Source: a virus
Strand: one strand, 5' to 3'
Length of the DNA stretch: 32,004 bases
Virus record (IMG/VR): IMGVR_UViG_3300036770_004584
Coordinates: 1 to 32,004 of that record
The position numbers and the translations under genes are program-made. Under the pieces are notes generated by a model, which was given only the letters and a program-made list of their open reading frames with translations, made no database searches and was not told the DNA's origin. This document shows, piece by piece, positions 11,774 to 27,177 of the stretch; position 1 is the stretch's first letter, and every line of letters begins with the position of its first letter.

Positions 11774-12451
11774 ATGGAATATACACAGACTTGGAGATCT
11801 GCCGCTGAAATCAATCAGGCGATGAGCAGGGTCTATGGTCACATGAGTTTAGCCGTGCTGACCAGCATGGTTGTCAGTTTTTTAATCAGCAGCTCGCCTG
11901 ATTTAATGCAGTTCTTTTTTACCGGAGCGATGAAATGGCTAGTGATGTTCGCACCATTAATCGGGATAATCGCGCTGAGTTTTGGACTAGATAAATTGAC
12001 CTACGGTCAAGCACAGATCGCCCTGCATGGGTTTGCCGCTTTGATGGGACTGAGTTTTGCCACTATCTTCGTGGTGTTTACTCTAGGCAGTATTGTATCG
12101 GCATTCATGAGCGCCGCAGTGTTGTTCGGCACGATGACGTTCTATGGCTATTTCACAAAACGTAGCCTAGAAAGCGTTGGACAGTTTATGTTTATTGGAC
12201 TAATCGCTATAGTTATCGCATCGATCATCAACATCTTTGTTGGCAGCACAGTGGCACAAATGGTGATCAGCGCCTTGGCTATCGTTATATTTCTTGGGTT
12301 GACTGCTTGGGATACTCAGAGAATTAGAGAAATGGTATCAATGGACAGCGTTGACGGACGTATGGAAGTCGCGGGTGCGTTGAGCCTTTATCTAAACTTT
12401 ATTAATATTTTCTTGAATCTATTGCAGTTATTTGGTAATCGTTCTGAATAA
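11774..12451 (+). CDS. Bax inhibitor-1/YccA (TMBIM) family membrane protein
   Basis: ATG 11774 follows AGGAGG. The product is 225 aa with about seven membrane helices and the family hallmarks: an early TM pair, the GTMTFYGYFTKRSLESVG loop, TAWDTQRI in helix six (Asp180) and GALSLYLNFINIFLNLLQLFG at the end (given here as one family motif of about 20 residues). In the YetJ-type calcium-leak channels two Asp in helices six and seven form a pH-sensing pair; here the second position appears to be Asn (N208), which would alter gating. Bacterial YccA also modulates the FtsH protease. In a phage it may change host membrane permeability or protect membrane proteins from FtsH. Driven by an early and a late promoter. 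Confidence 0.93.
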   Translation: MEYTQTWRSAAEINQAMSRVYGHMSLAVLTSMVVSFLISSSPDLMQFFFTGAMKWLVMFAPLIGIIALSFGLDKLTYGQAQIALHGFAALMGLSFATIFVVFTLGSIVSAFMSAAVLFGTMTFYGYFTKRSLESVGQFMFIGLIAIVIASIINIFVGSTVAQMVISALAIVIFLGLTAWDTQRIREMVSMDSVDGRMEVAGALSLYLNFINIFLNLLQLFGNRSE

Positions 12452-12799: not shown

Positions 12800-13051
12800 T
12801 TATTTACCAAATTTTAAGGCGAACTCTGTGCGTAATTCGGGTCGATAAAATTCTGCATACAGTTTCTGCATACCTGCGTTAATGCCTGTTTCTTTTTCTA
12901 ATATTAGTTGTACTTCTGTGTGCGGACGTCGATTGAGCCAACGTATTGTTTCGTTACCGGCTAGATCATGCACTAAAGGCCAAGGTATATCATTATAACT
13001 GTCGGTGTAATCACCTAGCCATTCGGCTAGCATAACTTTTTCATTCTTCAT
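12800..13051 (-). CDS. 83-aa protein downstream of the helicase, unknown
   Basis: The gene overlaps the helicase stop by 11 bases; a second ATG seven codons in (MLAEWLGDY) is an alternative start. The protein is acidic/aromatic at the N-terminus (EWLGDYTDSYNDIPWPLV) with a helical middle (GNETIRWLNRRPHTEVQLIL) and end (MQKLYAEFYRPELRTEFAL). No family recognised. Coupling to gp41 suggests a replication-linked role, inferred from position only. Confidence 0.72.
   Translation of the reverse strand: MKNEKVMLAEWLGDYTDSYNDIPWPLVHDLAGNETIRWLNRRPHTEVQLILEKETGINAGMQKLYAEFYRPELRTEFALKFGK
12801..12808 (-). promoter_or_regulatory. T4-like late promoter octamer GGTAAATA (minus)
   Basis: GGTAAATA on the minus strand overlaps the end of the preceding gene and ends 4 bases (AAGG) before ATG 12796. 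Confidence 0.5.
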
Positions 13052-14453
13052 CGTTGTTCATATTATTAAGTATTTCTCTCAGTTTACTGCTCTGTACTTC
13101 TGCCCTTACTTTACCAACGCTGACACCTTCAGTTGGTTCAGATCTCGTGATCTCAGTTTTACGTTTGATGCTGTCTAACAGTCCAGATGCACCTCTTTGA
13201 ACAGCACCATTGCTTTCTTGTTCTTCTTCAGGAAGATCTGTGATCTTTAGTGTTTCTAGATTAAACTCTAGATCAACCTTTTGGCCTACGCCCGAACTGC
13301 TTCTAGTCTTCATCAGCTGTATCTGATAGCGTCCCCGCTCGCGCATCGCACGGCTGGTAAAAATACCAAACACATTATCTGCTGTCTGGATCTTACTAAG
13401 TCCGCCGGAGATATGGCTATGATCAAACTCTACTTCCTCCACTGCACCACGATTCAACTGTGCCGCAGTAACTAATATGCATTGCTTTTCTACTGCTAGG
13501 TTTCTCAGTTCTTCTGATACATATTTGTCTTTGATAAACAGATCTGCCGGGGATATTTTCTTGCTCTGCGGCATAAGAAGGTCTAGATAGTCTACTAACA
13601 GCACATCAACTTTACGTCCTGTCTTAATTTCGTATTCTTTTAGATAGGCACGGATGTCGTTAGCGGTTTTACCAGACGGCATATATTTGACCTGATACGC
13701 ACCACTTTTTTTACCAATGATTCGCACCTTCATTTCCACATCATCAATTTCTTTAAAGATTTCTTTGGTACTTACACCAGTTGTCATTGCATCCATTCGC
13801 ATACAGACTAGATCTTCGGATAGCTCTAAGGTCAAATAAATTACATTTAGACCATTCAGAGCCCAGTTCACTCCTAAATTGGCTAGGAACAATGATTTAC
13901 CTGCACCTGATCCACCTGCGAAGATGTTGAGCTCTCCTCTGTTCATACCGCCAAACAGCCTACGATCTAAGCTGGGCCATCCTGTGCTAATCTGTCCATT
14001 CTTATCTTTGATACGCATCAGCCTCTGTCTTGGATCAGCAAAATAGTCAGTGCCCATATCTTTGGTAAGGCTGATCTGTACTGCTTCTTTGATTTTTATT
14101 TCAACTTGGCCGTAGTCCTTTTTCTCGAGAAGATCAGCCGATTCGATTATGGCTCTCTCTAAGGCTTTATGCCTGGTAAAGTTTTCAAATTCGTCCATCA
14201 ACCATTCATTATGGCCTTCTTTGATTTCTTCTGGTCGTTTAAAATCTGTCCTACAGCTGGCATTTACCATGTCATAATCGGGCAGCACCGAGTATTCTTT
14301 GGCATAGACATTTATGAATTCAGCAGCATCTTGTAATTTTCGATCAAATAATGTGTGATCGAATATTCCTTGACAACGGACGAATATTTCAGCGTCTGCC
14401 ATCATCATTTCTAAATATAGTTTTTGTACTTCGTATCCGTAATCTTTAATCAT
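13041..14453 (-). CDS. 41: replicative DNA helicase, T4 gp41 type (DnaB family)
   Basis: The C-terminal RecA-like domain carries GGMNRGELNIFAGGSGAGKS (Walker A at residues 180-187), a DnaB-type TLELSEDLVCMRMDA segment, Walker B VDVLLVDYLDLL (about 285-291), the TAAQLNRGAVEE sensor region (about 338-348), and the MRERGRYQIQLMKTRSS arginine-finger region. The N-terminal 150 residues match the helical DnaB-like collar. Length 470 aa is typical of gp41. It unwinds duplex DNA 5'-3' at the fork and forms the primosome with gp61, whose gene lies just upstream in the same cluster. TTTACC-17-TATAAT lies before the gene, with its ATG only 5 bases after the -10 box. Confidence 0.95.
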   Translation of the reverse strand: MIKDYGYEVQKLYLEMMMADAEIFVRCQGIFDHTLFDRKLQDAAEFINVYAKEYSVLPDYDMVNASCRTDFKRPEEIKEGHNEWLMDEFENFTRHKALERAIIESADLLEKKDYGQVEIKIKEAVQISLTKDMGTDYFADPRQRLMRIKDKNGQISTGWPSLDRRLFGGMNRGELNIFAGGSGAGKSLFLANLGVNWALNGLNVIYLTLELSEDLVCMRMDAMTTGVSTKEIFKEIDDVEMKVRIIGKKSGAYQVKYMPSGKTANDIRAYLKEYEIKTGRKVDVLLVDYLDLLMPQSKKISPADLFIKDKYVSEELRNLAVEKQCILVTAAQLNRGAVEEVEFDHSHISGGLSKIQTADNVFGIFTSRAMRERGRYQIQLMKTRSSSGVGQKVDLEFNLETLKITDLPEEEQESNGAVQRGASGLLDSIKRKTEITRSEPTEGVSVGKVRAEVQSSKLREILNNMNNDEE

Positions 14454-14458
14454 AAGTT

Positions 14459-14487
14459 ATTATACTTTCTAAGTGAAAACAGGTAAA
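14459..14487 (-). promoter_or_regulatory. sigma-70 type promoter before gp41 (minus)
   Basis: On the minus strand TTTACC (14487-14482), 17-base spacer and consensus TATAAT (14464-14459). Only AACTT separates the -10 box from ATG 14453. Confidence 0.6.
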
Positions 14488-15941
14488 CCGTATCGATCTT
14501 TCCAATTTTCAACATCCTTACTGTCATTCAATATTGGTTGTCCTTTGATATTAAGACTTGTGTTTAATAACATCGGACACCCTGTTTTTATAAACCACTT
14601 TTCTAAAAGGTCTCTAAATTCTGCATTATCTTTTGCTGAAACTGTTTGGACTCGACTGGTTCCGTCAAAATGAACCACGCCCGGATATTTTTCCGGACAC
14701 TTGCAACGTGCAGTAAATTGCATATAAGGACTTCTAGTCGAAGGCATATCAAAGTAAATGTCTGCGAATTCTTCCAGTACTGCAGGAGAAAAAGGCCTAA
14801 ACAATTCTCGCTGTTTGATTTTATTGACTCTATCTTTGATATCAGGAAGCCTTGGGTCTGCTATAAGGCTACGATTCCCCAAGGCTCTTGGGCCAAATTC
14901 AGCTTTTCCTCTGGCTAAGCCGCAAAGACTATTTTTTAATAGATAATCTATAATTACATTGTTATCTGTAGAATGTCCTAAATCATGACCTAGATAAGCC
15001 CCTGGCCATGATATGTGTTTTTGCTTATAGGCTAAGACACTGCCAATACTGCTGCCATTGTCGCCCGGCGCCGGCATTATCCAAACATTGTTATAGAATT
15101 TATAGGCAATATTGTTTGCCACGCAATTCAATGCGCATCCGCCCATTAACACTAAGTTATCGCTGGGATTAAGTTTTTTAGAATGGTCGATAACAGAATA
15201 AAACAGATCCTCATATATTTTTTGTACGGCAGCGGCTATGTCGAATTTGTCTTGTTCAGATTGTAATTCCGGTCTCCACCACAGGCAACCTTTGTGTAGA
15301 TTAGTAGAAAATTGTATCTTTTCTCTGTTACTATTTGAGGAAAAAAAATCTCTATATATTTCTGCATAGAATTTATATGGATCTCCAAGAGCAGCCATTC
15401 CCATTAAAATATATTCTTCTTCGTTTGGTTTTAATCCAATTCTTTGGGTCATAGCACTGTACCACAAGCCAATGCTATGTGGATAACTTAATCTGTGAAT
15501 TTTTTTTAAACGATCGCCCTCTGCCTTCCATACCGTTAAGGTTTCGAACTCACCGATGCTATCTATACAAACTACAGTGGCCTGTTCATATGGACTGGTG
15601 TAATATCCTGCCGACGCATGGCTGTGGTGATGACTTTGATATTTTATTGGAGATTTTAATTTATATGTACTAAGATATTTTTTGATATTATTTTCATTTA
15701 ATTTCAATCCTTGCCCGGCATATAATTGTCGTAATGTTTTTTTGTAAGGATTTTCGTACCAGCAGATTAAATCAGGCTCTCCGACTAGATGTAATGCTTC
15801 GTTAACAAGATCCATATGTAAATCTGGATCGTTTTTAATCTTACTGTAACGTTCGCTGTCGCTGGCGAATAATAAATCATCGTTTTTAAAAACAGCCAAT
15901 GAGGCATTATGACTATTAGCACTAATACCCCATACAATCAT
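14469..15941 (-). CDS. carbamoyltransferase, NodU/TobZ family
   Basis: The N-terminus MIVWGISANSHNASLAVF is the start of the YrdC/Kae1-like domain (G-I-S...H..S). SHHHSHASAGYY is the conserved His cluster; then VVCIDSIGEFETLTVW, GGCALNCVANNI, PAPGDNGSSIGSV, GKAEFGPRALGNRSL and the C-terminal LLNTSLNIKGQPI. Members transfer carbamoyl from carbamoyl phosphate, via carbamoyl-AMP, to a hydroxyl on a sugar or related acceptor. I place the start at ATG 15941 (GAGGA 8-14 bases upstream, ATGA overlap with the small gene above), not at the in-frame ATG 15962. At 490 aa it is shorter than the usual 550-600, lacking the last C-terminal part. Its position between primase and helicase raises the possibility of DNA-base modification. 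Confidence 0.93.
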   Translation of the reverse strand: MIVWGISANSHNASLAVFKNDDLLFASDSERYSKIKNDPDLHMDLVNEALHLVGEPDLICWYENPYKKTLRQLYAGQGLKLNENNIKKYLSTYKLKSPIKYQSHHHSHASAGYYTSPYEQATVVCIDSIGEFETLTVWKAEGDRLKKIHRLSYPHSIGLWYSAMTQRIGLKPNEEEYILMGMAALGDPYKFYAEIYRDFFSSNSNREKIQFSTNLHKGCLWWRPELQSEQDKFDIAAAVQKIYEDLFYSVIDHSKKLNPSDNLVLMGGCALNCVANNIAYKFYNNVWIMPAPGDNGSSIGSVLAYKQKHISWPGAYLGHDLGHSTDNNVIIDYLLKNSLCGLARGKAEFGPRALGNRSLIADPRLPDIKDRVNKIKQRELFRPFSPAVLEEFADIYFDMPSTRSPYMQFTARCKCPEKYPGVVHFDGTSRVQTVSAKDNAEFRDLLEKWFIKTGCPMLLNTSLNIKGQPILNDSKDVENWKDRYGLPVFT

Positions 15942-16075
15942 GTGGTCAATCCTCGCTTGCATTCAATTTCATACGTCATAATAAATTCAGGAATTTCTAT
16001 GATCGATAATAACATTAAAAATAAGAAAGTTGATGCTAAGAATCCTAAGGAGAAAGATAAAAAATATTTTTTCAT
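15938..16075 (-). CDS. 45-aa single-span membrane protein
   Basis: A frame of 45 codons lies between two solid genes, starting in an ATGA overlap with the 37-aa gene above and ending in an ATGA overlap with the carbamoyltransferase. The product MKKYFLSFSLGFLASTFLFL then MLLSIIEIPEFIMTYEIECK and RGLTT has one strong N-terminal membrane helix and a short polar tail. AAGGAG (in the reverse strand, CTCCTTAG downstream) belongs to its coding region, not a binding site. Exact coupling at both ends makes it likely real. Confidence 0.65.
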   Translation of the reverse strand: MKKYFLSFSLGFLASTFLFLMLLSIIEIPEFIMTYEIECKRGLTT

Positions 16076-16185
16076 TTGTATATAAAAGGGTCTCTCTTTT
16101 TAAGTTCTTCGATTCGTTTTTTTAACTTTCTCTTTTCTAAAAATTTAGTTAACGGGGAAATCAACCAATTAAATATTTTTTTCAT
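16072..16185 (-). CDS. 37-aa basic peptide with amphipathic start
   Basis: The ATG lies inside the last codons of the primase gene (GAGAATG) and the stop overlaps the next ATG. It encodes MKKIFNWLISPLTKFLEKRK followed by LKKRIEELKKRDPFIYK: a hydrophobic/amphipathic start and a very basic coiled-coil-like helix. It could be a membrane-surface peptide. It is supported by position and coupling rather than by homology. Confidence 0.6.
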   Translation of the reverse strand: MKKIFNWLISPLTKFLEKRKLKKRIEELKKRDPFIYK

Positions 16186-17197
16186 TCTCTAAAATCTCCA
16201 GTTTTCGCTTTTGTTGATTTTTCGCCAGATTAATTTTGATACTGCCCTTTTGAGCAGTCTTAATCAAATCTGTAATGACAAATAATTTTCCGTATCTATT
16301 CACAGCATCGGCAACATCTTTAATATCATTATCCCAATTAGGCATCGCTACCGACCAATTCAATTCGGCAGCTCGATCAAATAATACTAACCCTGCTTGA
16401 TCTTGATCTGGAACCAATATAACTTCTGTGTTTAGACTATTAATTATCCTGGATTGTTGATCTGCTACATCGTTAGTGAGAAGAGCCACGCCGCCGACAG
16501 CTAAGGCATCAAACGGGCCTTCACAAACAAACAGATAACGTTGTTTTTCTGTTTGCTTATCGAAATTAAAAACAAAATGAGGATGCTGATCTGAAAGATA
16601 TTTAGGTTTTCCATTCGTGATTTTTCGCGCCGTATTACCGACGATTCTTTGATCCCATCGAAAAGGAATAATTACTCGATCAGCGTAACCAGCAGCAGGG
16701 CTCCAATAAAAATCTGCAGACAACGGATCCATTTGCCTACTGTAAAGGTATTCAATAATCGGATCAAGTAATTCAGAAACATCATTGTAAAACTCTGATT
16801 GTAACCATTCAGAGATCATCATTGATCCGTCTGGTAGAGTTTTTTCTGTAAAATCTAGTTTAGGTTGATATTTTTCCGAGCTATAATCTTCAGCTTCTGT
16901 TTTTAATGACTCGAACACAATTTCTTTAATAGTATCCTCGCCGGCGCCCATCCATCTAAGGAGAGTTTTCATTTTTTCCCCGATGGAAGATCCAGGTTGC
17001 CAGCCAGTAGAAAATTTACAATTGAAACAATTGTAAACGATACCATCCCCATCAAATCTAACACCGGCCCTTTTTCTAGTGTCTGCTTTATGTCCCCTGT
17101 GCTGGCAGCAAGGTGCATTAAAACTTAGCCAACCGCTAGGGCTATTTTTTGTTCGAGGAGGTAATAGTGTTCTAAACTTATCTACGACTAAGGTCAT
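16169..17197 (-). CDS. 61: DNA primase, T4 gp61 type
   Basis: An N-terminal zinc-binding motif is visible: Cys30/Cys31-x-His33-x2-His36 and, after about 20 residues, C57-F-N-C60 (NAPCCQHRGHKADTRKRAG and VYNCFNCKFSTGW). The Toprim domain follows: YLFVCEGPFDALAVGG (Glu226) and EVILVPDQDQAG (Asp264, Asp266). Length 342 aa fits gp61. It makes RNA primers for lagging-strand synthesis together with gp41. TTGACA-17-TATACT lies directly upstream, with ATG only 6 bases after the -10 box. The 3' end overlaps the 37-aa gene. Confidence 0.95.
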   Translation of the reverse strand: MTLVVDKFRTLLPPRTKNSPSGWLSFNAPCCQHRGHKADTRKRAGVRFDGDGIVYNCFNCKFSTGWQPGSSIGEKMKTLLRWMGAGEDTIKEIVFESLKTEAEDYSSEKYQPKLDFTEKTLPDGSMMISEWLQSEFYNDVSELLDPIIEYLYSRQMDPLSADFYWSPAAGYADRVIIPFRWDQRIVGNTARKITNGKPKYLSDQHPHFVFNFDKQTEKQRYLFVCEGPFDALAVGGVALLTNDVADQQSRIINSLNTEVILVPDQDQAGLVLFDRAAELNWSVAMPNWDNDIKDVADAVNRYGKLFVITDLIKTAQKGSIKINLAKNQQKRKLEILENEKNI

Positions 17198-17232: not shown

Positions 17233-18277
17233 ATGTTCCAGTATTTGCTTCAGAAGTTCCGCCGCGTATAAAAGATTGGACTCCGTTATATGATAACCCG
17301 GACCAAGTTATTCCGGTTATCTCTCCATTGTCGCCGACAGCGGTTATAGTGACCGTTAAGTCGTTAGTTGGAGTTTCGCCCCCCAAGGTTCTTCCTTTAA
17401 TTAATAGTTGTGTGCCAACTTGATAACCTCTTCCTGGGTTATTAATTGAAACATTGTAATATCCAAAAATTGTCTGATTGACTTCGAAAGCACCTAACAG
17501 ATCATTTTGGTCTGGTATGTGTTTAATTCTAAAAAAGTTATACTTGCCAACAATATTCACATATTCTCTATCTGCTTCTACATAATCAATGGTCCTTACA
17601 TCAACCCAAGTTTGCGGGTTTCCGCCTTGGTCAATACTACCTTGTACAATTACTCTGCCGCTGTAGTTACTCATATATAAATCAAAAGTGTGTAGAGACT
17701 GGGGAGTTACAAGTTGAGAGTTAGTATAAATTATTCCGCTCAAATAAAAATCATCTTGAGGATCTAACAAAGCATAATATTTGAATTCCGAAACTTCAAA
17801 ACTAGCCCGAGGCTCTCCCGTAAGACTTTGGATTATTTCTAATCGTCCTATGCTTCCATATTGACTATCCACATAAGCAGGGTATCTACTTACAACATCG
17901 TGAGTAGTAGAATCGATATTTGTTCTAGTTTCATAAACTAAATTAAAAGAATATAAGCCTGGTTCAATATTTAAGATTTCATTTTCAGAAATTATTACAT
18001 AAATTTTACCGGTTTCGCTATCCTGTGTCACACAATCTTTTTGAAGTATTAATTCTTGAGTTTCTGTTCCAACTATTGAAAATACAAATACTGCGTCACC
18101 GATATTTTTAAATTTTTGATCAGAACTTTTAACACGAAATTCTATTTTATTACTAGAACCTCGATATAGTTTTAGATTGCGTTGATACACTTGTCTATAC
18201 CTCTCTTGTTCCCAATCCTGGATATTTGTGTAAGCATCCAATCGATTTGGATATAAATAAACTGAATCCAATTGCAT
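17210..18277 (-). CDS. probable virion structural protein, 355 aa
   Basis: The protein is almost entirely beta-structured. The last 90 residues contain a repeat unit typical of marine phage fibre or baseplate proteins (NNPGRGYQVGTQLLIKGRTL, GGETPTNDLTVTITAVGDNG, EITGITWSGLSY). The middle has YYALLDPQDDFYLSG, IYTNSQLVTP and FRIKHIPDQNDLLGAFEV. This fits a tail-fibre or baseplate-associated virion protein; which one is not clear. A GATAAATA late promoter and an AAAGG ribosome binding site 9 bases before the ATG support late expression. It is isolated among replication genes. Confidence 0.78.
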   Translation of the reverse strand: MQLDSVYLYPNRLDAYTNIQDWEQERYRQVYQRNLKLYRGSSNKIEFRVKSSDQKFKNIGDAVFVFSIVGTETQELILQKDCVTQDSETGKIYVIISENEILNIEPGLYSFNLVYETRTNIDSTTHDVVSRYPAYVDSQYGSIGRLEIIQSLTGEPRASFEVSEFKYYALLDPQDDFYLSGIIYTNSQLVTPQSLHTFDLYMSNYSGRVIVQGSIDQGGNPQTWVDVRTIDYVEADREYVNIVGKYNFFRIKHIPDQNDLLGAFEVNQTIFGYYNVSINNPGRGYQVGTQLLIKGRTLGGETPTNDLTVTITAVGDNGEITGITWSGLSYNGVQSFIRGGTSEANTGTFDKILYR

Positions 18278-18295
18278 ATTAAAGGACCTTTACTA

Positions 18296-18303
18296 TATTT
18301 ATC
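18296..18303 (-). promoter_or_regulatory. T4-like late promoter octamer GATAAATA (minus)
   Basis: GATAAATA on the minus strand, followed by AAAGG and ATG 18277; this one has a normal leader of about 18 bases. Confidence 0.65.
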
Positions 18304-18304
18304 T

Positions 18305-18676
18305 ATGCGAATAACTGAAAATATTAAGGAAAACTTTCCGTTTATTACCGTAATTTCTCATGTAGACAAAGAATATGTGGGAATAATGATTAATCAAGAT
18401 GCTCAAATTACTAGTTTTTACGATTATAGTTTGCTAAAAACAGAAGAAGAGAAAAAAACATTCTTGGAACTAGGTGAATCCTGGTGGTGGGAGAGTAATA
18501 GGCAAATTCCAATCAATATTTTTTTACATAGTGAAATTGGTCCTTATAGATATAGTATTAGAAATTTCGCTTCTAAAGATGTTAAGATTTTGTTTGGACC
18601 GGTAATTAGTTTAAATAATATTTTAGTTAAGCGTGTAAAACGTAAGTCTATTACATTAGTCAAAAAAATTAGTTAG
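18305..18676 (+). CDS. 123-aa conserved marine T4-like phage protein
   Basis: A plus-strand gene in an otherwise minus-strand cluster. ATG 18305 (MRITENIKENFPFITVISHV) is preferred; the upstream in-frame ATG 18272 would overlap the divergent promoter and the start of the virion gene. The sequence TFLELGESWWWESNRQIPINIF then FLHSEIGPYRYSIRNFASKD, ending KRKSITLVKKIS, recalls a conserved unknown of marine T4-like phages with a WWWESNR-IPINIFL core. It ends with a 4-base convergent overlap with the DnaE-like gene. Function unknown. Confidence 0.8.
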   Translation: MRITENIKENFPFITVISHVDKEYVGIMINQDAQITSFYDYSLLKTEEEKKTFLELGESWWWESNRQIPINIFLHSEIGPYRYSIRNFASKDVKILFGPVISLNNILVKRVKRKSITLVKKIS

Positions 18677-19251
18677 CTGTAACCATAGCTAATTTGTTCA
18701 CAAATTAAATTCATCTGAACAACAATAGCCATAGCATATGCAGTAGCATGGCTTTTCTTAAAATAATATTCGTTGCTGCTAGGCTTCTTCCAAACTTCCT
18801 GTAAAACTTCTTTCATTGGTCGGCCTAACAGGTGCCGTTTAGCAGGACGAATTATTGCTAGGACTGCTGCTAATTCTTCTATACTACAGGGTTTCATAGT
18901 CTGACAAATTTTAGCATGTCCATTTAAATGAAACAGTAAGTTAACAAAATCTTCCTGCTCTAATAGGTCCCATAGAGGATCTTTATTCATGAGTTCTATA
19001 AGATGTTCTTCGTTTCGAACGCCGTTGTACATGCTTACATTGAGGAAGTCGATTTTAAAATATCCCAGATCTTCCGCTTGATCAAAAGGGATATCAGAAA
19101 AATTATTAAGACAATTGAACGGAACTTCGTGCAGATATACGCCAGTATTGTGCTTGACCAGTGTACCTTTTTCTTGCCGACTAGCAGATACATGATTAAT
19201 TTTTTCTAATATTGCATTTCTATCGCAGAAATCTATATCAATGTCAGGCAT
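18673..19251 (-). CDS. miniature DnaE-like protein (Pol III alpha core)
   Basis: The protein is 192 aa yet follows the motif order of bacterial DNA polymerase III alpha: PDIDIDFCDRNAILEKI at residues 2-18 (Asp5/Asp7, the palm D-x-D), KHNTGVYLHEVPF at 33-45, FDQAEDLGYFKIDFLNVS at 56-73 (Asp68, third catalytic Asp in K-x-D-F-L), SIEELAAVLAIIRPA at 123-137 and FKKSHATAYAMAIVVQM at 164-180 (the fingers K-SHA-x-YA). Full DnaE is over 1,000 residues, so PHP, thumb, beta-clamp and OB parts are absent and the palm is strongly condensed. It may be catalytic, a nucleotide or template binder, or a dominant interference factor. Its start overlaps the preceding gene by 8 bases. Confidence 0.8.
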   Translation of the reverse strand: MPDIDIDFCDRNAILEKINHVSASRQEKGTLVKHNTGVYLHEVPFNCLNNFSDIPFDQAEDLGYFKIDFLNVSMYNGVRNEEHLIELMNKDPLWDLLEQEDFVNLLFHLNGHAKICQTMKPCSIEELAAVLAIIRPAKRHLLGRPMKEVLQEVWKKPSSNEYYFKKSHATAYAMAIVVQMNLICEQISYGYS

Positions 19252-19435: not shown

Positions 19436-19659
19436 TGAATTCTAGTAGTTTCAAAAAGTAATAGCGGTAAAGTTTGAGCTAAAAATTCTGCGTATTCTTC
19501 TGCATCTTCACTGTCGTCGAACCCGCTAAATTTTACATATACTGCCGGACTGTCTTCTTCAGTGGTTGACATCACTTCGATGTCGATGTCGTCTCTAGAA
19601 ATAAAATCTTCATTGTCTGCTAATTCTTTATCATTTTTTTCGTCCACTCTTTTTACCAT
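19432..19659 (-). CDS. 75-aa acidic conserved phage protein
   Basis: An acidic polypeptide: MVKRVDEKNDKELADNEDFI, EVMSTTEEDSPAVYVKFSGF and a helical end DAEEYAEFLAQTLPLLLFET. The 'VYVKFSGF.D..DA..YA.FLA..LPLLLFE' motif resembles a conserved unknown of marine T4-like phages. The start overlaps the zinc-finger gene stop by one base (TAATG) and the stop overlaps the next ATG. Confidence 0.78.
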   Translation of the reverse strand: MVKRVDEKNDKELADNEDFISRDDIDIEVMSTTEEDSPAVYVKFSGFDDSEDAEEYAEFLAQTLPLLLFETTRIQ

Positions 19660-20342
19660 TACGATATCTTCGCCTCCCGGATTATATCCTTAACCAGTTC
19701 TAGATCAGCAGGTAATGTTTTAAATTTTTTTATCCAAAATTCAGGATCTATCATAGTTGAAATAATTTGCAACTGTTCGTCAGTGAACTTTGATAACATT
19801 GTTTTACCTGACTTTGTATTTAACAATAGCCAGGGACTGATTAATCCTTCTTTTATATCATGAGTAGCGCGATTAAGATTAACGTATAAAAAATAGTGTT
19901 CCCATGTCGAATTGTTTTTGTCAGCCCAATCCATCATAGTCTTGATCGTTCGCTGTATGGCTCCGTCCGCCGGTTCTTTTTTAATCATATCCATTACGTA
20001 TGAATAATACAGTTCGTCCCTACACCAATGATCAAGTTTAACACCACTAGTGATTACATATTCTATAAATTTTTCTGGATGTATCGGAGATGTATTAACA
20101 ATAAAACTTCCGAATTTTACAAATGAATTATAGTACGGACTTGCAATAAATTCATCGAAAGTTTTAGGAGATTTGGTCTTTTGTGTAATTTGATAAAATT
20201 TTTGATAGGTCAACAAACCTGCTTGAACATGTTTTTCATTACGTGACAAATATCGACGTTTTTGTTCGCAAACATGCACCACTAAAGTTTTTTCTTTAGT
20301 GAAGAATTTTCCGCAGTGTTCGCATTTATAACTTGAGGTCAT
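19659..20342 (-). CDS. 227-aa protein with N-terminal zinc finger
   Basis: Residues 5-25 form a C2H2/C2HC-like finger: YKCEHCGKFFTKEKTLVVHV followed by C (C-x2-C-x12-H-x-C). The rest is helical and basic: RYLSRNEKHVQAGLLTYQKF, FDEFIASPYYNSFVKFGSFI, GVKLDHWCRDELYYSYVMDM. This finger plus 'YYNSFVKFG' layout resembles a conserved unknown gene of marine T4-like phages. It is probably a nucleic-acid-binding protein in replication or late transcription. It overlaps its upstream gene by 17 bases. Confidence 0.8.
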   Translation of the reverse strand: MTSSYKCEHCGKFFTKEKTLVVHVCEQKRRYLSRNEKHVQAGLLTYQKFYQITQKTKSPKTFDEFIASPYYNSFVKFGSFIVNTSPIHPEKFIEYVITSGVKLDHWCRDELYYSYVMDMIKKEPADGAIQRTIKTMMDWADKNNSTWEHYFLYVNLNRATHDIKEGLISPWLLLNTKSGKTMLSKFTDEQLQIISTMIDPEFWIKKFKTLPADLELVKDIIREAKIS

Positions 20343-20805: not shown

Positions 20806-21058
20806 CGTCTTTGCTCAAGTGATAAATCAGTATAGCACGATCTAGAGCATCTCGCAAGAGCGGATTTGATTTTGCTTTTCGTCTAATTTCACCCCAGAGT
20901 TTATCTTCTTTAATCTCTTCTATTTTACACTTAGCTTTGGTACTTTGGCCTATCATCCACTTGTCAGTTTCTCCTGCGTACCTCGCATATACTGTATCAC
21001 CCCCGTCTGGGCTTTCGTAGATAATTTTAGCTCCTGGTTTGAGTGATCCCATGATCAT
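20798..21058 (-). CDS. 86-aa conserved phage protein, unknown
   Basis: The protein opens with a beta unit (SLKPGAKIIYESPDGGDTVY) and closes with a helical LWGEIRRKAKSNPLLRDALD and RAILIYHLSKDDG. The 'IYE..DG...YAR ... LWGEIR..AK.NP.L..AL.R.I..Y.LSK' pattern resembles a conserved unknown of marine T4-like phages. ATG 21058 overlaps the methyltransferase stop (ATGA) and is preceded by AAAGGA; ATG 21052 is an alternative. Confidence 0.78.
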   Translation of the reverse strand: MIMGSLKPGAKIIYESPDGGDTVYARYAGETDKWMIGQSTKAKCKIEEIKEDKLWGEIRRKAKSNPLLRDALDRAILIYHLSKDDG

Positions 21059-21606
21059 ATCCTTTCGGCCATGATAAAAAAGTTTTTTACAGGAATTTCT
21101 TTCCTTAGTTGCTTTGAATATTTTGAAAATTCTTTGTAGTCTTCTTTTATAACACGAACTCCTGCCTGTGTAAACTTATTTCTCCACCATTCTGGAGTTT
21201 CTTGTATTAGGTGTGCATTTCTTCCATCTGGTAATATAAGCTTGGCAGGGGCACAACTTATTAGATGATATTGCAAAGGCGATTTTATACATAAAGTTTC
21301 TAAAACTGTTTTGATGTGCTCAGGTTCTACATGCTCAAGGACATCTGTGGATATAATCATATCTACATCTGGTAATGGAATATCATACTCTGGATTAGCT
21401 GGATCATACCCTATAATCTTTTTATTAGGGTACAATTCATTTAAAACTTTAACAAGATTTCCTTTTCCGCATCCAAAGTCTAAAACAGAGTTAGGCTGTT
21501 TTATTTTAATAAATTCGTCTAGATAAGGGGGAACTTTTGCTCGTTTTCCGAATGGCGTGTTTTTGTGAATATCTCTGTAAATATTTTTAAGAGAGTTAGA
21601 GATCAT
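21055..21606 (-). CDS. class I SAM-dependent methyltransferase
   Basis: Motif I SVLDFGCGKGNLVKVLNEL (about residues 40-58), an acidic end of strand 2 (IIGYDPANPEY), motif IV VDMIISTDVLEHVEPEHI (about 80-97) and a Methyltransf_11/23-type layout. 183 aa. The acceptor is not visible; with cupin, glycosyltransferase-like and FkbM genes just upstream, a sugar or surface-polymer O-methyltransferase is the natural guess. It begins in an ATGA overlap with the cupin gene. Confidence 0.85.
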   Translation of the reverse strand: MISNSLKNIYRDIHKNTPFGKRAKVPPYLDEFIKIKQPNSVLDFGCGKGNLVKVLNELYPNKKIIGYDPANPEYDIPLPDVDMIISTDVLEHVEPEHIKTVLETLCIKSPLQYHLISCAPAKLILPDGRNAHLIQETPEWWRNKFTQAGVRVIKEDYKEFSKYSKQLRKEIPVKNFFIMAERI

Positions 21607-21947
21607 TTACTAAAACCAACAGTTTCTCTTTCAATGTCGTCGTGATCAAATTCAGCCCAATACAATTCAAACGCTATGCAATCTTCTACTGCTTCAAATT
21701 GATGGTATTCTCCCGGAGCAACTTTCGTATATTGCCCAGCTTCTAAAATTGTTTCGTCGACAAGATCGTAATTATTTTTCCATACACGAATAATCATTTT
21801 TCCGCTCTCGACAAAAAAACCATTCCATTTATATTTGTGTTTGTGTTTAGAACACACTCCTCCTGCTTTGGCTTCAATTCTATGAAATTCTAGAACGCCG
21901 TTGGCTTCTAATAATTCAGTCTGACCCCACACTTTTCCTGCTTTCAT
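21603..21947 (-). CDS. cupin-domain protein, 114 aa
   Basis: A single cupin fold: the motif-1 region CSKHKHKYKWNGFFVESGKM (two His, then a Gly turn) and the motif-2 region VAPGEYHQFEAVEDCIAFEL (P-G-x-x-H). I chose ATG 21947 because GGAG lies about 8 bases upstream; an ATG 18 bases earlier lacks one. Single-domain cupins of this size include sugar isomerases and epimerases as well as non-catalytic binders; given the sugar genes nearby, a role in nucleotide-sugar metabolism is plausible but not shown. It overlaps the end of the gene above by about 32 bases. Confidence 0.82.
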   Translation of the reverse strand: MKAGKVWGQTELLEANGVLEFHRIEAKAGGVCSKHKHKYKWNGFFVESGKMIIRVWKNNYDLVDETILEAGQYTKVAPGEYHQFEAVEDCIAFELYWAEFDHDDIERETVGFSK

Positions 21948-22572
21948 TATTTTTCTCCGTTTCAATAATTGTAAATTTATGGTTAGCTTTATATTGTTGA
22001 CTGTAATGAGAACCTGTCATGTTATATAACTTATACTTTCTCAGTTCAACTTTTAATTGTTTATATTCGATAATATTATCATCTCCTGGATAATTCATAT
22101 TGTAATAAATCTGAGCCCATGCTTCGGAATCTCCCTGCCATCTTGATCTGTCATTCGGAAATAGATCTATAGCTTCTTGAAATATTGGATAAGCAGTCTT
22201 TTTGGCTAATCTCCATGCTGGTGATATCCTATTTTCTCTCACAGTGAATGCAGCATCACCAATTAAATCTGGAATCAAGTTGGTGAGCCTAGCATCTGGT
22301 TCTGTAAACCAATAAGTTTGATTATCTTCAGCGACGGTCTTTAGAAATTCAGTAAAAAAAACTTCACGATTAAAGTTTACCCAATCCGGGTTTCCTTCAA
22401 AATAAATGTTTTCGTCTCCTAGTCCTTGATGTCCTTCTAATGTTATATGTATTAATGGTATATTGTGCTTTTTTAAATTATTTCGTAAACCTAACATTAA
22501 TTCTTCATATAACCCTTTAGGAAATTTATCTGAGATTCTAGGACAATTAGCATAGTACACTACTGCTTTCAT
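21916..22572 (-). CDS. glycosyltransferase-like protein, 218 aa
   Basis: The protein begins with a Rossmann-like strand (MKAVVYYANCPRISDKFPKG), then KHNIPLIHITLEGHQGLGDE, NREVFFTEFLKTVAEDNQTY and a W-F-T-E-P-D-A segment with an acidic pair like a nucleotide-sugar metal site. Later WQGDSEAWAQIYY fits the acceptor side. The layout resembles small GT-A-type glycosyltransferases of phages, but no family signature is firm. It lies two bases after the FkbM gene and overlaps the cupin gene. Confidence 0.6.
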   Translation of the reverse strand: MKAVVYYANCPRISDKFPKGLYEELMLGLRNNLKKHNIPLIHITLEGHQGLGDENIYFEGNPDWVNFNREVFFTEFLKTVAEDNQTYWFTEPDARLTNLIPDLIGDAAFTVRENRISPAWRLAKKTAYPIFQEAIDLFPNDRSRWQGDSEAWAQIYYNMNYPGDDNIIEYKQLKVELRKYKLYNMTGSHYSQQYKANHKFTIIETEKNNESRKSVGSD

Positions 22573-22574
22573 TT

Positions 22575-23177
22575 TTAGTCTTTAATTAAAATGTGATCAT
22601 ATCCTCTTGGATCTACTGCGGCTATTTTATAGCCTAATTCTTTTTGAATCCATTCTAAGGTATCTCTTTCGAAATAAACTTCTAAATTAATTACTGGCCA
22701 ATAAGTCGTTATAGTTTCTAATGCACCATTTAAGACTGCCATTTCATAGCCGTCTGTATCGATTTTAATGTAATCAACATCTGTAAAATTAAAGTCATCT
22801 AATCTACAAAAGTTTTCGTTACCAATCGGGTCATTTCCTTTACGCTCACTGATTGGTTTATCGCCCAATGGTACTCCAAAATGCGTAACACGACTTACGT
22901 CTACATTATGCGGGAAAAACTTTCTTGTTCTTGGGTCGAACGCAAAAATATCTTTAAAATCTCTTATCAAATATCTTGTGTATTCGCCGTCTCTGCATCC
23001 AATATCTATAGCAGTTCTAAATTTTTTAACAAAAGGCTTACTAAGTTCATAAGCGAGTTTGCAATGATGATTAGGATATTCTGCTGCTCCTACTTTACAG
23101 TAAAAGAAATCTCTTTCAACAAATGATTCTTCGTAGTATCCGGGAGCAAACAGAGTGGGTTCAACTGGATAAGTCAT
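22575..23177 (-). CDS. FkbM-family methyltransferase 1
   Basis: SAM-binding motif AIDIGCRDGEYTRYLIRDF (about residues 55-73), acidic motif IFAFDPRTRKF, and the FkbM signature DYIKIDTDGYEMAVLNGALE (about 135-154) followed by WPVINLEVYFE. 200 aa. The family O-methylates sugars and polyketides. It is the first gene of its minus-strand unit, behind a perfect TATAAATA late promoter and an AAGGAAA ribosome binding site. Confidence 0.88.
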   Translation of the reverse strand: MTYPVEPTLFAPGYYEESFVERDFFYCKVGAAEYPNHHCKLAYELSKPFVKKFRTAIDIGCRDGEYTRYLIRDFKDIFAFDPRTRKFFPHNVDVSRVTHFGVPLGDKPISERKGNDPIGNENFCRLDDFNFTDVDYIKIDTDGYEMAVLNGALETITTYWPVINLEVYFERDTLEWIQKELGYKIAAVDPRGYDHILIKD

Positions 23178-23195
23178 AATTTTTTTCCTTTCTGC

Positions 23196-23203
23196 TATTT
23201 ATA
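23196..23203 (-). promoter_or_regulatory. T4-like late promoter TATAAATA (minus)
   Basis: A consensus TATAAATA on the minus strand with a normal leader (18 bases, AAGGAAA) before ATG 23177. It is two bases from a plus-strand octamer, forming a divergent pair. Confidence 0.75.
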
Positions 23204-23205
23204 AC

Positions 23206-23213
23206 GTTAAATA
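23206..23213 (+). promoter_or_regulatory. T4-like late promoter octamer GTTAAATA (plus)
   Basis: GTTAAATA ends 5 bases before ATG 23219. Confidence 0.55.
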
Positions 23214-23218
23214 GTTTG

Positions 23219-24016
23219 ATGATAAAATATGCCTATTGTCCAGAAATAATAGAAAATAAAAGTTCTAATTGGATTTTGCAGCCTTGGATAAAGTCTGGAG
23301 CAAAACTTTTTAATACAGTCAAAGAAGTTCCTGAAGATTACGTTTTGATTTCTGTACATTATCCACCTTGGCGGTCTCCTTACAAAGAATGGATTTCTTT
23401 AGGAAGAAAACACATAGAAGTAGACTACGGGTATTGGGGAATTAATAATCCTAGAAGAAATACACGCAGAGTCACATATGGCGGCGGCCATAATCTTAAC
23501 ATGAGATCCACTCCATTCAGCAGGACACACACTTTGCATCCTAAAATTGAAAATTGGAGAGATTCGCTAGGCGAATATCTTTTGTTAATCGAACCACAAC
23601 AAGAAATAGTTAAGGAAAGATTAGGAATAGATTTAGGTACATGGAAAAATAATTTATTAGAAACATTATCGCGTCATTGGGATGGTCCAATTAAATGGAG
23701 GCGCAAGGCAGGAGGTAAAAATCCTGGCCGGTGGCCTAGTTTTTTAGAAGACCTAAAAGGATGTCATGCAGTTGTAGGTGAACGAACAATGGCCTGCGTC
23801 GAAGCCGTTATGTTAGGAAATCTTGCCTACACTACAGATTATTCAACTGTAAGTTTGCTAATGGGAACTGATTTATCTAAATTAAAAAAACCAGAGTATC
23901 CAGATCGTACGAAATGGCTTAATCACGTTGCTTGGAGCCAATTTTTACCTGAAGAATTTGGTAATAATACTTCTGTAGCAGACATGGTCTATCAGTATCA
24001 AATGGAGAATATTTAA
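23219..24016 (+). CDS. glycosyltransferase-like protein, 265 aa
   Basis: Start at ATG 23219, 5 bases after GTTAAATA; TTG 23216 is also in frame. The protein begins MIKYAYCPEIIENKSSNWIL, has VEVDYGYWGINNPRRNTRR-like basic-aromatic segments and a C-terminal nucleotide-binding-type region (GCHAVVGERTMACVEAVMLG) that matches the 'S..g.EAl..G.P' logic of capsule-type and GT-B glycosyltransferases. The protein at the right edge of the window has a comparable segment. It stands with an FkbM gene on the plus strand amid minus-strand genes. Confidence 0.62.
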   Translation: MIKYAYCPEIIENKSSNWILQPWIKSGAKLFNTVKEVPEDYVLISVHYPPWRSPYKEWISLGRKHIEVDYGYWGINNPRRNTRRVTYGGGHNLNMRSTPFSRTHTLHPKIENWRDSLGEYLLLIEPQQEIVKERLGIDLGTWKNNLLETLSRHWDGPIKWRRKAGGKNPGRWPSFLEDLKGCHAVVGERTMACVEAVMLGNLAYTTDYSTVSLLMGTDLSKLKKPEYPDRTKWLNHVAWSQFLPEEFGNNTSVADMVYQYQMENI

Positions 24017-24685
24017 ATGGAATACAAGTATGTAAACGGATGGAAATTTCCTGCTTATGAAACTAGATTGTTAGCTATTGACGAACAGGGAGAAAGCACA
24101 TACAGTGGATTAAAGCATGTTGATATTGCTTTAGAACATGTAAAAGAATTTGGCGTAATGATAGATGTAGGTGCAAATGTTGGTTTGATCACGGTACCGA
24201 TGGCTAAAAAATTCAATGAAATTTATTCATTTGAATGTGTTCCTGAAACTTTCGAATGTTTAACCTATAATACTCAGTCTTATAATAATGTTTCATGTTT
24301 TAACGTTGCGGTTTCGGACAGTATTTCAAAAGTGAAAGTTGCTATTCCGAAATCAGATGGCGTAGTATACTCTTCTGGCTGGGCTTCAATTTCAAAAGAA
24401 CGCCAAGAATCATTTCCAGAAAAAGACTTAATTGAAGTTGATTCTTTAACTCTAGATAGTTTAAATTTAAAGAGGTTAGATTTTTTGAAAATTGATGTAG
24501 AGCAAGCAGAAATGATGGTGATCAGAGGAGCTCTTGAATCAATAATGAAATTTAAACCTGTTATTGAATTTGAAAATAAAAGAAGAGAAAATGTAGAGGT
24601 AATTGGATTATTAAATTCTATTGGTTATTCAATTATACCAGGCAGAAAGGCCAAGTCTTCTGAATGTATAATGATTCCTGGTTAA
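24017..24685 (+). CDS. FkbM-family methyltransferase 2
   Basis: MIDVGANVGLITVPMAKKF (about residues 52-70) is motif I with the FkbM D-V-G-A-N-V-G signature; IYSFECVPETFECL follows, then DSLNLKRLDFLKIDVEQAEM and VIRGALE (the FkbM D-x-E-x-x-E block). 222 aa. It starts immediately after the previous stop (TAAATGG) and ends in a 4-base convergent overlap with the next minus gene. The acceptor is probably a sugar of a surface polymer. It is not close to the first FkbM protein of this window outside the motifs. Confidence 0.9.
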   Translation: MEYKYVNGWKFPAYETRLLAIDEQGESTYSGLKHVDIALEHVKEFGVMIDVGANVGLITVPMAKKFNEIYSFECVPETFECLTYNTQSYNNVSCFNVAVSDSISKVKVAIPKSDGVVYSSGWASISKERQESFPEKDLIEVDSLTLDSLNLKRLDFLKIDVEQAEMMVIRGALESIMKFKPVIEFENKRRENVEVIGLLNSIGYSIIPGRKAKSSECIMIPG

Positions 24686-25422
24686 GTTAATCTATTAACA
24701 AATCTATTAATAAGATAATCTTTATCGTCTCCTTTGGCATGCACAATGTTAGTTCCAATTAATGATTGACTGAAAGGATTTTTATTTGTCTTTGCTTGGC
24801 TGTTAATGTTAAAAAATAATTCAGGTTTATTCCAGGATAATCTAACAACATCAAAAGTATAAGAATCGTGCGTTTCTTTAAGTTCTATAAACTTGCCGCT
24901 GAGATATAAATTCTCCCATTCTTCTAAAAATTTTCTAGTATCAGGATGCGACAGATTAAACCCGATCCACCCGCACTCGGAAAATTTTCCTGGGCGACCC
25001 ATGTAAGATATCATGTACTGATCTGGACAAACTTTTTTCAAAAAAACTTCGTCGATTTTTTTATAGATAAATGCGTCAACATCTAACCATATCAACCAAT
25101 CACTAGTTTGTAGTTTTGCACAATGCCAAATGGCAAAAGTTTTATGTACAAATTTTACAGCATTAGTTCTATAATTTTTTGCACCGTTAGCTTTAGGGTT
25201 ATCTTTCCATTGTTCTACGAATGCTGGCAATTGCGGACATGATGAATATAAATCAAGCCAGTGTACTCTCGGTGAGAAATTATTTGTTGGTATTTTTCCT
25301 AATTGATTGTATAAAAAAACATCACATGTGTCTAGCCAATTAGTATCTAATTTTGAGATCGTCGTTTCTCCGATCTCTTCCCAATATTTTTGATTAAAAC
25401 TGGTTAATACATTATATTTCAT
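24682..25422 (-). CDS. GT-A type glycosyltransferase-like protein, 246 aa
   Basis: A D-x-D site is clear in SDWLIWLDVDAFIYKKI (about residues 106-122), with the upstream AKLQTSDW strand and a conserved ECGWIGFNLSHPDTRKF block as in GT-A enzymes. The C-terminus has NIVHAKGDDKDYL, a motif position where retaining GT-A enzymes carry H-x-K-G. It transfers a sugar from a nucleotide donor; the acceptor is unknown. Its start overlaps the preceding stop (ATGA). Confidence 0.8.
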   Translation of the reverse strand: MKYNVLTSFNQKYWEEIGETTISKLDTNWLDTCDVFLYNQLGKIPTNNFSPRVHWLDLYSSCPQLPAFVEQWKDNPKANGAKNYRTNAVKFVHKTFAIWHCAKLQTSDWLIWLDVDAFIYKKIDEVFLKKVCPDQYMISYMGRPGKFSECGWIGFNLSHPDTRKFLEEWENLYLSGKFIELKETHDSYTFDVVRLSWNKPELFFNINSQAKTNKNPFSQSLIGTNIVHAKGDDKDYLINRFVNRLT

Positions 25423-26159
25423 TTCATAATCTCTTTATAAATTGATTCCGCTCTTTTTTTTCTCTTCGGACCTTTGAAATCTATGATAATTGGATTTACA
25501 CCAATTTCAGGAATTTGTTTTTTTATTGGAGATACAAAATTTGAACCATATTGAAAAAGTTTAATAGTTAGATTTTTTAAATGGAAAGTTCCGATTGGCA
25601 GGTTTTTTGCTGAAAAATTTAATATTTGCTCTTCTTCTAATATTTTTTGATAACTTAATTGATCTCCGAACCATAATTTATCGTTTTCAGAAAGTCTTTT
25701 ATAGCAATCATAGCGTCTTTCAAAAAATTCTACGACATTTTTTTTGTTTGTATTATTGACGAGAACAATAGTATTGTTTACTCTCAATGGATTACCAACT
25801 ATTGCTATTCCAATGTCGAATTCACTATTAAACAAACCATTTACCGAGGAGTTAACTAAATGATCGGCACCACATAAGATAAGTTTATCATTCTTAGATT
25901 TGACATATTCTAAATTACTTACACAAAAACTTTCCATTATATTTAGATTATCTAAGTTAGATCTAAAAACATTAAAATTCTTTAATCTTGTATGTTGATC
26001 TGACGTAATTTCAAAATTGTATGATGTATTAAATTTAAAAAATGTATCATACATTCTTATTAAATTTTTTTTGTAATCAAAAATTTGCGACATTTCATTT
26101 ACTTCATGCCCTTCAAACTTAAGATCTGTGTCTTTATAAAAGGGAGCTAGAATAATCAT
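25419..26159 (-). CDS. glycosyltransferase-like protein, 246 aa
   Basis: MIILAPFYKDTDLKFEGHEV opens the protein; NDKLILCGADHLVNSS provides a possible acidic metal site, LWFGDQLSYQKI fits the acceptor-side loop, and the C-terminus IGVNPIIIDFKGPKRKK resembles the 'H/D-F-K-G-x-[RK]K' end of GT-A proteins of capsule clusters. The similarity of layout to the 246-aa gene below suggests paralogy. It overlaps the aminotransferase gene above by 26 bases. Confidence 0.68.
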   Translation of the reverse strand: MIILAPFYKDTDLKFEGHEVNEMSQIFDYKKNLIRMYDTFFKFNTSYNFEITSDQHTRLKNFNVFRSNLDNLNIMESFCVSNLEYVKSKNDKLILCGADHLVNSSVNGLFNSEFDIGIAIVGNPLRVNNTIVLVNNTNKKNVVEFFERRYDCYKRLSENDKLWFGDQLSYQKILEEEQILNFSAKNLPIGTFHLKNLTIKLFQYGSNFVSPIKKQIPEIGVNPIIIDFKGPKRKKRAESIYKEIMK

Positions 26160-27177
26160 TAATTGCCTCTATTACACCCTCATAATCTACACCTGGATAT
26201 ATGGGTAAACTTACTTCATGGAACGCTATTCGATCTGTTTCAGGTAAAAAGTATGAATTCCTATAAGCAGGTAATCGATGTACTGGTAAAGGATAGTGAA
26301 CCTTTAGATCTACTCTATCTTTAACGGCTTTTATTACGTCGTCTCTATTTTGAAACAGAACAGGATAGATATGGAAACTGTGTTCCACATGATTTTTCAC
26401 ATTAATAAACTTAAAATGTTCTGAATATTTTTTTGCAATTTCTCTTTTTTGTGCCAATACATCATTAAAACATCTTAACTTTATTCTTAGGAATTCTGAT
26501 TGTATATTAGACATTCTATAATTAAACCCAACATCATTTTCGTCCCATGATCGGGCTTTTTTAATATAATTTGCAATTTCCTTATCGTTAGTGATAATAC
26601 ATCCCGAATCACCCAATGCTCCTAATCCTTTTCCAGGATAAAAACTGAAAGTACCGATAGTACCAAATGATCCTACATGTTGACCTAAATATCTAGTTCC
26701 GTGTGCCTGGCTGCAATCTTCTACAACAGGTATTTTAAATCGATTAGCTACATCTAAAATTGCCGGCATATCTGCAAAATTGCCGTAGATGTGAACAGGC
26801 ATAATTAGTTTTGTTTTAGACGTAATTTTTTGTTCTAGTTGTGAAGCATCTAATGTAAATGTTTCTTGATCTACATCTACAAAGACTGGAGTAGCTCCAC
26901 AATATTTAATAGCAGAAACTGTTGCTCTAAAAGTGTGACTAACAGTGATAACCTCGTCTCCTGGGCCAATTCCTAGACTCAACAATGCAAGGTGTAAGGC
27001 AGATGTTCCGTTAGAAACAGCCACGCAGTATTTTGTTCCAACATAATCCGCGAACTCCTCCTCAAATTTTTCTGTTCCGAACACATAGTTTCCGCTACGA
27101 ATAACTTCGGCAGATTTCTTTATAAGTTCTTCTTCTATTGGGCTGTGTATTTCTTTAAAACTGTAAAAAGGTATCAT
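26134..27177 (-). CDS. DegT/DnrJ/EryC1/StrS sugar aminotransferase
   Basis: The PLP-dependent family motifs are all present: SNGTSALHLALLSLGIGPGD, SHTFRATVSAIKYCGATPVF, VVEDCSQAHGTRYLG, and the lysine block GTFSFYPGKGLGALGDSGCI with the Schiff-base Lys at residue 183 (from the chosen start), then FNYRMSNIQSEFLRIKL. These enzymes aminate keto groups of nucleotide sugars using glutamate. I chose ATG 27177 because it overlaps the preceding TGA as ATGA; ATG 27186 is in frame. 347 aa, slightly shorter than typical. It follows a dehydrogenase and an acyltransferase gene, as in short amino-sugar pathways. Confidence 0.93.
   Translation of the reverse strand: MIPFYSFKEIHSPIEEELIKKSAEVIRSGNYVFGTEKFEEEFADYVGTKYCVAVSNGTSALHLALLSLGIGPGDEVITVSHTFRATVSAIKYCGATPVFVDVDQETFTLDASQLEQKITSKTKLIMPVHIYGNFADMPAILDVANRFKIPVVEDCSQAHGTRYLGQHVGSFGTIGTFSFYPGKGLGALGDSGCIITNDKEIANYIKKARSWDENDVGFNYRMSNIQSEFLRIKLRCFNDVLAQKREIAKKYSEHFKFINVKNHVEHSFHIYPVLFQNRDDVIKAVKDRVDLKVHYPLPVHRLPAYRNSYFLPETDRIAFHEVSLPIYPGVDYEGVIEAINDYSSSLL

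What the first reader, a model, noticed from the sequence alone, without database searches (positions are those of the whole stretch)
18673..19251. A 192-residue miniature DnaE with all three catalytic Asp
Seen: PDIDIDF (Asp5, Asp7), K-I-D-F-L (Asp68), IRPA and KSHATAYA in the same order as in the bacterial Pol III alpha subunit. Known: the two Asp in P-D-x-D-x-D-F and the Asp in K-x-D-F-L are the metal ligands of E. coli DnaE. Here the distance between them is about 60 residues rather than about 150 and everything outside the core is missing. T4-like phages use a family B polymerase, so this is a second polymerase-derived module. It could be a minimal polymerase, a nucleotidyltransferase, or an inhibitor that mimics host DnaE.
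Basis: partly seen in the sequence, partly recalled or inferred. Interest (0 to 1): 0.78.

Follow-up and report, generated by a model that had tools for sequence, protein, structure and literature searches.

The report
Half of a split viral polymerase
The gene encodes one half of a very small two-part DNA polymerase of bacterial type that many giant phages carry next to their normal polymerase; the pair was predicted in 2021 but nobody seems to have tested what it does.

Summary
The ORF is real but lies on the minus strand (19251..18673, 192 aa). It is a Pol III alpha (DnaE) relative: PHROG 11778 at E=2e-63, AlphaFold pLDDT 92.8, and the 15 best PDB fold matches are all C-family polymerases. 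(1) The metal ligands D401/D403/D555 of E. coli align with D3, D5 and D68, not D5 and D7; D7 matches the conserved D405. (2) It is not a stand-alone mini-enzyme but only the C-terminal half of a palm. It starts at E. coli position 399. The missing N-terminal half (GRGS motif, ending at E. coli 393) is a separate ~170-aa gene elsewhere in the genome. Both genes occur together in 59 of the 60 listed phage records (the exception is a 109-kb record) and in every large viral contig of at least 285 kb checked. PHP was not found; thumb and most of the fingers are absent; the three Asp, K553 and the steric-gate His (H760) are invariant. An intact family B polymerase is also present. Iyer et al. 2021 already predicted this split minimal Pol III in jumbo phages. 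New here: the fixed split point, the retained sugar gate, presence in a 141-kb phage, and a linked convergent gene. Activity and role remain untested.

The parts
18673..19251 (-). C-half: C-terminal subunit of a split minimal Pol III alpha (phrog_11778), 192 aa; equivalent to E. coli DnaE 399-~780 without the thumb and most of the fingers
19237..19245 (-). codons D3-I4-D5 of MPDIDIDF = E. coli D401 and D403, two of the three metal ligands
   Evidence: alignment; invariant in 91/91 and in all correctly picked rows; ligand roles from PMC3919608 and PMC8485763
19048..19056 (-). codons K66-I67-D68 = E. coli K553 and D555 (third metal ligand)
18748..18750 (-). codon H168 of KSHATAYA = E. coli H760, the proposed steric gate against ribonucleotides; invariant
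   Evidence: PMC8485763
18844..18849 (-). codons R135-P136 of IRPA = E. coli FRPGP (fingers base), invariant in the family
18272..18676 (+). convergent small gene (phrog_11637, unknown function) whose stop codon overlaps the C-half stop; homolog in 89 of 91 C-half loci; probably starts near 18308
16169..17197 (-). primase (gp61-like), part of the conserved replication cluster
   Evidence: synteny
13041..14453 (-). DnaB-like replicative helicase (gp41-like), part of the conserved replication cluster; homologous to the genes annotated helicase in relatives
   Evidence: homolog search; annotation of relatives
19659..20342 (-). phrog_11058 protein with an N-terminal C2H2-like zinc finger (below Pfam cut-off), conserved just upstream of the C-half; candidate extra subunit, untested

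Best explanation
The ORF is the C-terminal subunit (metal ligands, K553, base of the fingers, steric-gate helix) of a two-protein, thumb-less, PHP-less, clamp-less C-family DNA polymerase. The N-terminal subunit (helices plus the GRGS nucleotide-binding motif of the palm) comes from a distant gene near the clamp loader. The two fold independently and should join non-covalently, since there is no room for an intein, to rebuild one Pol-beta-like palm. Because the sugar gate and all metal ligands are kept, it should add deoxynucleotides to a primer, distributively. Its gene sits with primase and helicase and its partner near the clamp loader, while an intact family B enzyme is present. The most likely role is therefore an accessory replisome polymerase: short extension of RNA primers before hand-off to the family B enzyme, or gap filling. 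Shown by computation: homology, the split, co-occurrence, residue conservation, predicted fold of each half. Inferred: assembly, catalysis, role.
For: C-half family and fold. N-half found by TIGR00594 in 12 of 13 phage genomes, in each ending before the DxD motif; PF07733 above the gathering cut-off; pLDDT 91, ranks 1-19 in PDB all Pol III alpha/PolC, 1.3 A over 71 columns. N-half aligns to E. coli up to 393 and the C-half starts at 399. N-half frame stops 35 codons after the G-x-GRGS start in 77 of 80 (others 36-41), no fusion seen. Co-occurrence: 59 of 60 listed phage records with the C-half have the N-half, the exception being a 109-kb record; SCTP-2 and the 141-kb Alishewanella phage have both, as do contigs of 345, 364 and 372 kb. 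D3, D5, K66, D68, H168 invariant. Median dN/dS 0.10. Family B polymerase with intact SLYP/DTDS motifs in most of the same genomes. PHP not found in 10 genomes, while control genomes ring.
Against: No experiment shows assembly or activity, and a complex could not be predicted here. The LRRAMGKKK fingers segment, thumb, OB fold and clamp motif are missing, so DNA and triphosphate binding may be too weak for a polymerase, and the substrate may differ. The window is a 32-kb fragment, so its own N-half is not seen. Tree-distance correlation between halves (r 0.89; partial 0.55 given family B polymerase, 12 genomes) is only suggestive. Synteny is lost in XacN1 and RAS14.
Confidence: 0.72

Rival explanations
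1. The two halves form a palm-only nucleotidyltransferase that is not a template-directed polymerase (for example end-tailing or nucleotide transfer to another acceptor).
For: Thumb and most of the fingers, including E. coli LRRAMGKKK (708-716), are missing; the palm fold belongs to the Pol-beta nucleotidyltransferase superfamily (established knowledge; PMC7824862).
Against: The steric-gate His of the fingers O helix and the IRP motif are invariant, which fits primer-terminus/dNTP geometry; genes lie with primase, helicase and clamp loader.
Confidence: 0.15
2. Non-catalytic decoy or inhibitor that mimics host DnaE and disturbs the host replisome.
For: Small size and lack of host-specific domains; phages do carry host-replication inhibitors (general knowledge).
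Against: All three metal ligands, Lys and His gate invariant across the aligned sequences; a partner gene with the GRGS motif co-occurs; family spans phages of very different hosts.
Confidence: 0.06
3. Remnant of a decayed full-length DnaE acquired from a host, without function.
For: Domains are lost relative to bacterial DnaE.
Against: Median dN/dS 0.10, more than 500 viral relatives of nearly constant length, fixed split point.
Confidence: 0.02

Closest known systems
Split minimal DNA polymerase III alpha of 'group 2.2' jumbo phages (Iyer et al. 2021, PMC7824862); PHROG 11778 (C-half) and PHROG 11127 (N-half)
   Different: No difference in kind. The window adds an uncultivated-virus member, 37-52% identical to cultured-phage homologs aligned here. 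The family also reaches a 141-kb phage, outside the jumbo range.
Bacterial DnaE / Pol III alpha (E. coli DnaE, Taq Pol III alpha)
   Same: GRGS motif, D401/D403/D405, K553, D555, FRP, KSHxxxYA motifs in the same order; both halves are predicted to fold like it.
   Different: Two genes; PHP, thumb, middle fingers, HhH, OB and C-terminal domain absent; about 360 residues in all versus 1160.
Cyanobacterial split DnaE (Ssp DnaE split intein)
   Same: One C-family polymerase encoded by two separate genes (from memory).
   Different: There the parts carry intein halves and are spliced; here the N-half stops at E. coli 393 and the C-half begins at 399, with no room for an intein, and the split lies in the palm.

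Membership tests
Split minimal Pol III alpha of jumbo phages (Iyer et al. 2021) | C-terminal protein with metal-binding Asp and template-binding part of Pol III alpha, nothing else | tested here: met
Split minimal Pol III alpha of jumbo phages (Iyer et al. 2021) | Separate distant gene for the N-terminal NTP-binding part | tested here: met
   met in relatives; the window itself is a 32-kb fragment, so its own copy cannot be seen
Split minimal Pol III alpha of jumbo phages (Iyer et al. 2021) | Family B DNA polymerase in the same genome | tested here: met
   13 of 13 related genomes, two more, catalytic motifs found in most; not in the window fragment
Split minimal Pol III alpha of jumbo phages (Iyer et al. 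2021) | The two proteins assemble into an active enzyme | not testable with these tools
   prediction in PMC7824862; no complex prediction or assay available
C-family DNA polymerase (DnaE/PolC) | Three catalytic Asp (D401, D403, D555) in an intact palm | tested here: met
   D3, D5, D68; palm complete only with the N-half
C-family DNA polymerase (DnaE/PolC) | PHP domain, thumb, HhH and clamp motif on the chain (PHP and HhH nearly universal, PMC3919608) | tested here: not met
   absent from both chains; PHP not found in 10 genomes with 14/14 controls ringing
DnaE rather than PolC type | Asp at D405, Asn in PolC (PMC3919608) | tested here: met
   D7 invariant; the one odd row is a mis-picked ORF in L222
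Split-intein DnaE | Intein halves at the break | tested here: not met
   N-half ends 35 codons after the GRGS motif start in 77/80 and the C-half starts at MPDIDIDF or a few residues before

The most novel reading that the evidence does not exclude
The two halves assemble into the smallest known C-family DNA polymerase (about 360 residues, no thumb, no clamp motif), working in one replisome beside an unrelated family B replicase, for example as the enzyme that extends RNA primers before hand-off; the conserved convergent gene (phrog_11637) or the zinc-finger neighbour (phrog_11058) may be further parts.
Probability: 0.35. Interest if true: 0.8.

Novelty: new member of a known kind. Interest (0 to 1): 0.5.

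Why it matters
If the pair is active, it shows how little of a bacterial replicase is needed for DNA synthesis, how a catalytic palm can be cut into two genes without splicing, and that giant T4-like phages may run two unrelated polymerases at one fork. The fixed split point and the retained sugar gate make the 2021 prediction directly testable with two small proteins that are predicted to fold well.

Tried and rejected
Stand-alone mini-polymerase: rejected, half of the palm is elsewhere. Trans-splicing by a split intein: rejected. Missing PHP supplied by another gene: none found. Broken family B polymerase, which would make this the main replicase: not supported, motifs A and C intact in most genomes. 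Fused N+C gene: none among 80 N-half and about 166 C-half viral loci. Cellular or plasmid homologs: no plasmid copy (one weak 26% match); in genomes only two contigs with strong matches, both in archaeal MAGs and probably viral, plus weak hits at 26-29% identity, mostly ordinary DnaE by their hosts and coverage. PDB sequence search with a single sequence gave nothing useful; the fold search did.

Full report
Observation. The ORF is real, on the minus strand 19251..18673, 192 aa starting MPDIDIDF. It matches phrog_11778 'DNA polymerase' at 2e-63 and, weakly, full-length DnaE models (phrog_405 5.7e-10; TIGR00594 7.6e-6). Alignment of the family with E. coli DnaE puts window M1 on M399, so the metal ligands D401, D403, D555 (PMC3919608, PMC8485763) are D3, D5 and D68; D7 is D405, conserved in DnaE but Asn in PolC. 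K66 is K553, R135-P136 lie in the FRPGP motif and H168 is H760, the proposed steric gate against ribonucleotides. D3, D5, K66, D68 and H168 are invariant in 91 of 91 sequences spanning cultured phages and viral contigs and in the wider set (where the single odd row at D7 and K66 is a mis-picked ORF in L222).

It is only half of a palm. The window protein lacks everything N-terminal of the DxD strand, including the GRGS motif that holds the triphosphate. A TIGR00594 search of 13 related phage genomes found, in 12 of them, a second ORF (164-213 aa open frames where no stop is read through) matching model positions between 250 and 393, just before the DxD motif at 398. These ORFs end in ...WGxGRGSSxxSYxLxLIGxHxxDSxxYxLDxxEFL(K/R) and stop. 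They are phrog_11127 and pass the Pfam PF07733 gathering cut-off. Their end aligns with E. coli 393, and the window protein starts at 399: five residues separate the two. In 80 viral-contig copies the frame stops 35 codons after the G-x-GRGS start in 77, and no fused copy was seen. There is no room for an intein, unlike the cyanobacterial split DnaE.

Both halves are predicted to fold like Pol III alpha. AlphaFold gives pLDDT 92.8 (C-half, window sequence, 53 rows) and 91.2 (N-half of a related 270-kb viral contig, 51 rows). In PDB the top 15 hits of the C-half and the top 19 of the N-half are all C-family polymerases; the N-half fits Taq Pol III alpha at 1.3 A over 71 columns. Foldseek E-values are modest (2e-3 and 8e-3), as expected for fragments of a 1100-residue chain. 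Thumb (about E. coli 433-509, boundaries from memory), the LRRAMGKKK fingers segment, PHP, HhH, OB and clamp motif are missing. PHP was not found in ten genomes although all 14 control genomes ring.

Co-occurrence. Of 60 listed phage records with the C-half, 59 have the N-half; the exception is a 109-kb record. Salicola phage SCTP-2, first seen only with the N-half, has both. Alishewanella phage Slicko01 (141 kb) also has both, 11 kb apart beside the clamp loader, primase and helicase genes. Viral contigs of 345, 364 and 372 kb have both; shorter ones often show one, as fragments would. The 280-kb contig G001 has the C-half but no N-half hit; it may be incomplete. Strong matches outside viruses are limited to two contigs in archaeal MAGs, probably viral.

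Context. The C-half lies in a conserved order: UvsW ... phrog_11758, zinc-finger phrog_11058, C-half, convergent phrog_11637, a structural-protein-like gene, primase, DnaB helicase. In RaK2, GAP32 and Paride the N-half lies a few genes before the clamp loader. All 13 genomes tested, plus SCTP-2 and Slicko01, also have a family B polymerase, with intact SLYP and DTDS motifs in most. Selection on the C-half is strongly purifying (median dN/dS 0.10 in 72 pairs, many of them sharing near-identical sequences). Distances of the two halves correlate (r 0.89; partial 0.55 after family B polymerase, 12 genomes), which is suggestive only.

Prior knowledge. Iyer et al. [quoted passage not shown] The CBB and Atu_ph07 papers noted one short alpha-like protein. 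No experimental study was found in the open-access library, which lacks most subscription papers and preprints. So this is a new member of a known, untested kind. What this work adds: exact split position and its constancy, corrected ligand mapping, invariant steric-gate His (which predicts dNTP choice), extension to a 141-kb phage, and the tightly linked convergent gene.

Mechanism. Most likely the halves associate non-covalently into one palm with both nucleotide-binding and metal-binding parts and act as a distributive accessory DNA polymerase near the primase and clamp-loader steps. That the halves belong together and are under selection as catalytic parts is well supported (about 0.95 by my estimate). 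DNA polymerase activity is inferred (about 0.7), and the primer-extension role is a guess from gene order (about 0.3).

Noticed in passing
window 18272-18676 (+): A convergent gene (phrog_11637, no known function) whose stop codon overlaps the C-half stop by 4 bases; the same stop offset recurs in 47 of 80 loci and a homolog is found in 89 of 91 C-half loci, even where the rest of the synteny is lost (XacN1, RAS14).
   Followed up: partly
window 19659-20342 (-): phrog_11058 protein with a C2H2-like zinc finger (below Pfam cut-off) conserved just upstream of the C-half in 87 of 91 loci; candidate extra replisome subunit.
   Followed up: partly
window 14469-15962 (-): A NodU-like carbamoyltransferase gene sits between primase and DnaB helicase in the window and its nearer relatives, but no homolog was found in the cultured-phage loci examined.
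   Followed up: partly
L007 7992-8567 (Atu_ph07, NC_042013): The annotated DNA polymerase CDS starts at 8073, which cuts off MKNIPDIDIDF with two catalytic Asp; the open frame starts at 7992.
   Followed up: no
OQ508956.1 3529-5033 (loci L310, L311) and W03, W04: Family B polymerase matches fall in two separate open frames in Alishewanella phage Slicko01, Paride and Atu_ph07, suggesting split or intron-bearing genes.
   Followed up: no
window 11774-12451 (+): ORF that reads like a Bax inhibitor-1 family membrane protein (recognised by eye, not searched).
   Followed up: no
window 21055-28998: A run of methyltransferase-, glycosyltransferase-, aminotransferase- and acyltransferase-like ORFs between the zinc-finger gene and UvsW, apparently a sugar-modification cluster (by eye, not searched).
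   Followed up: no
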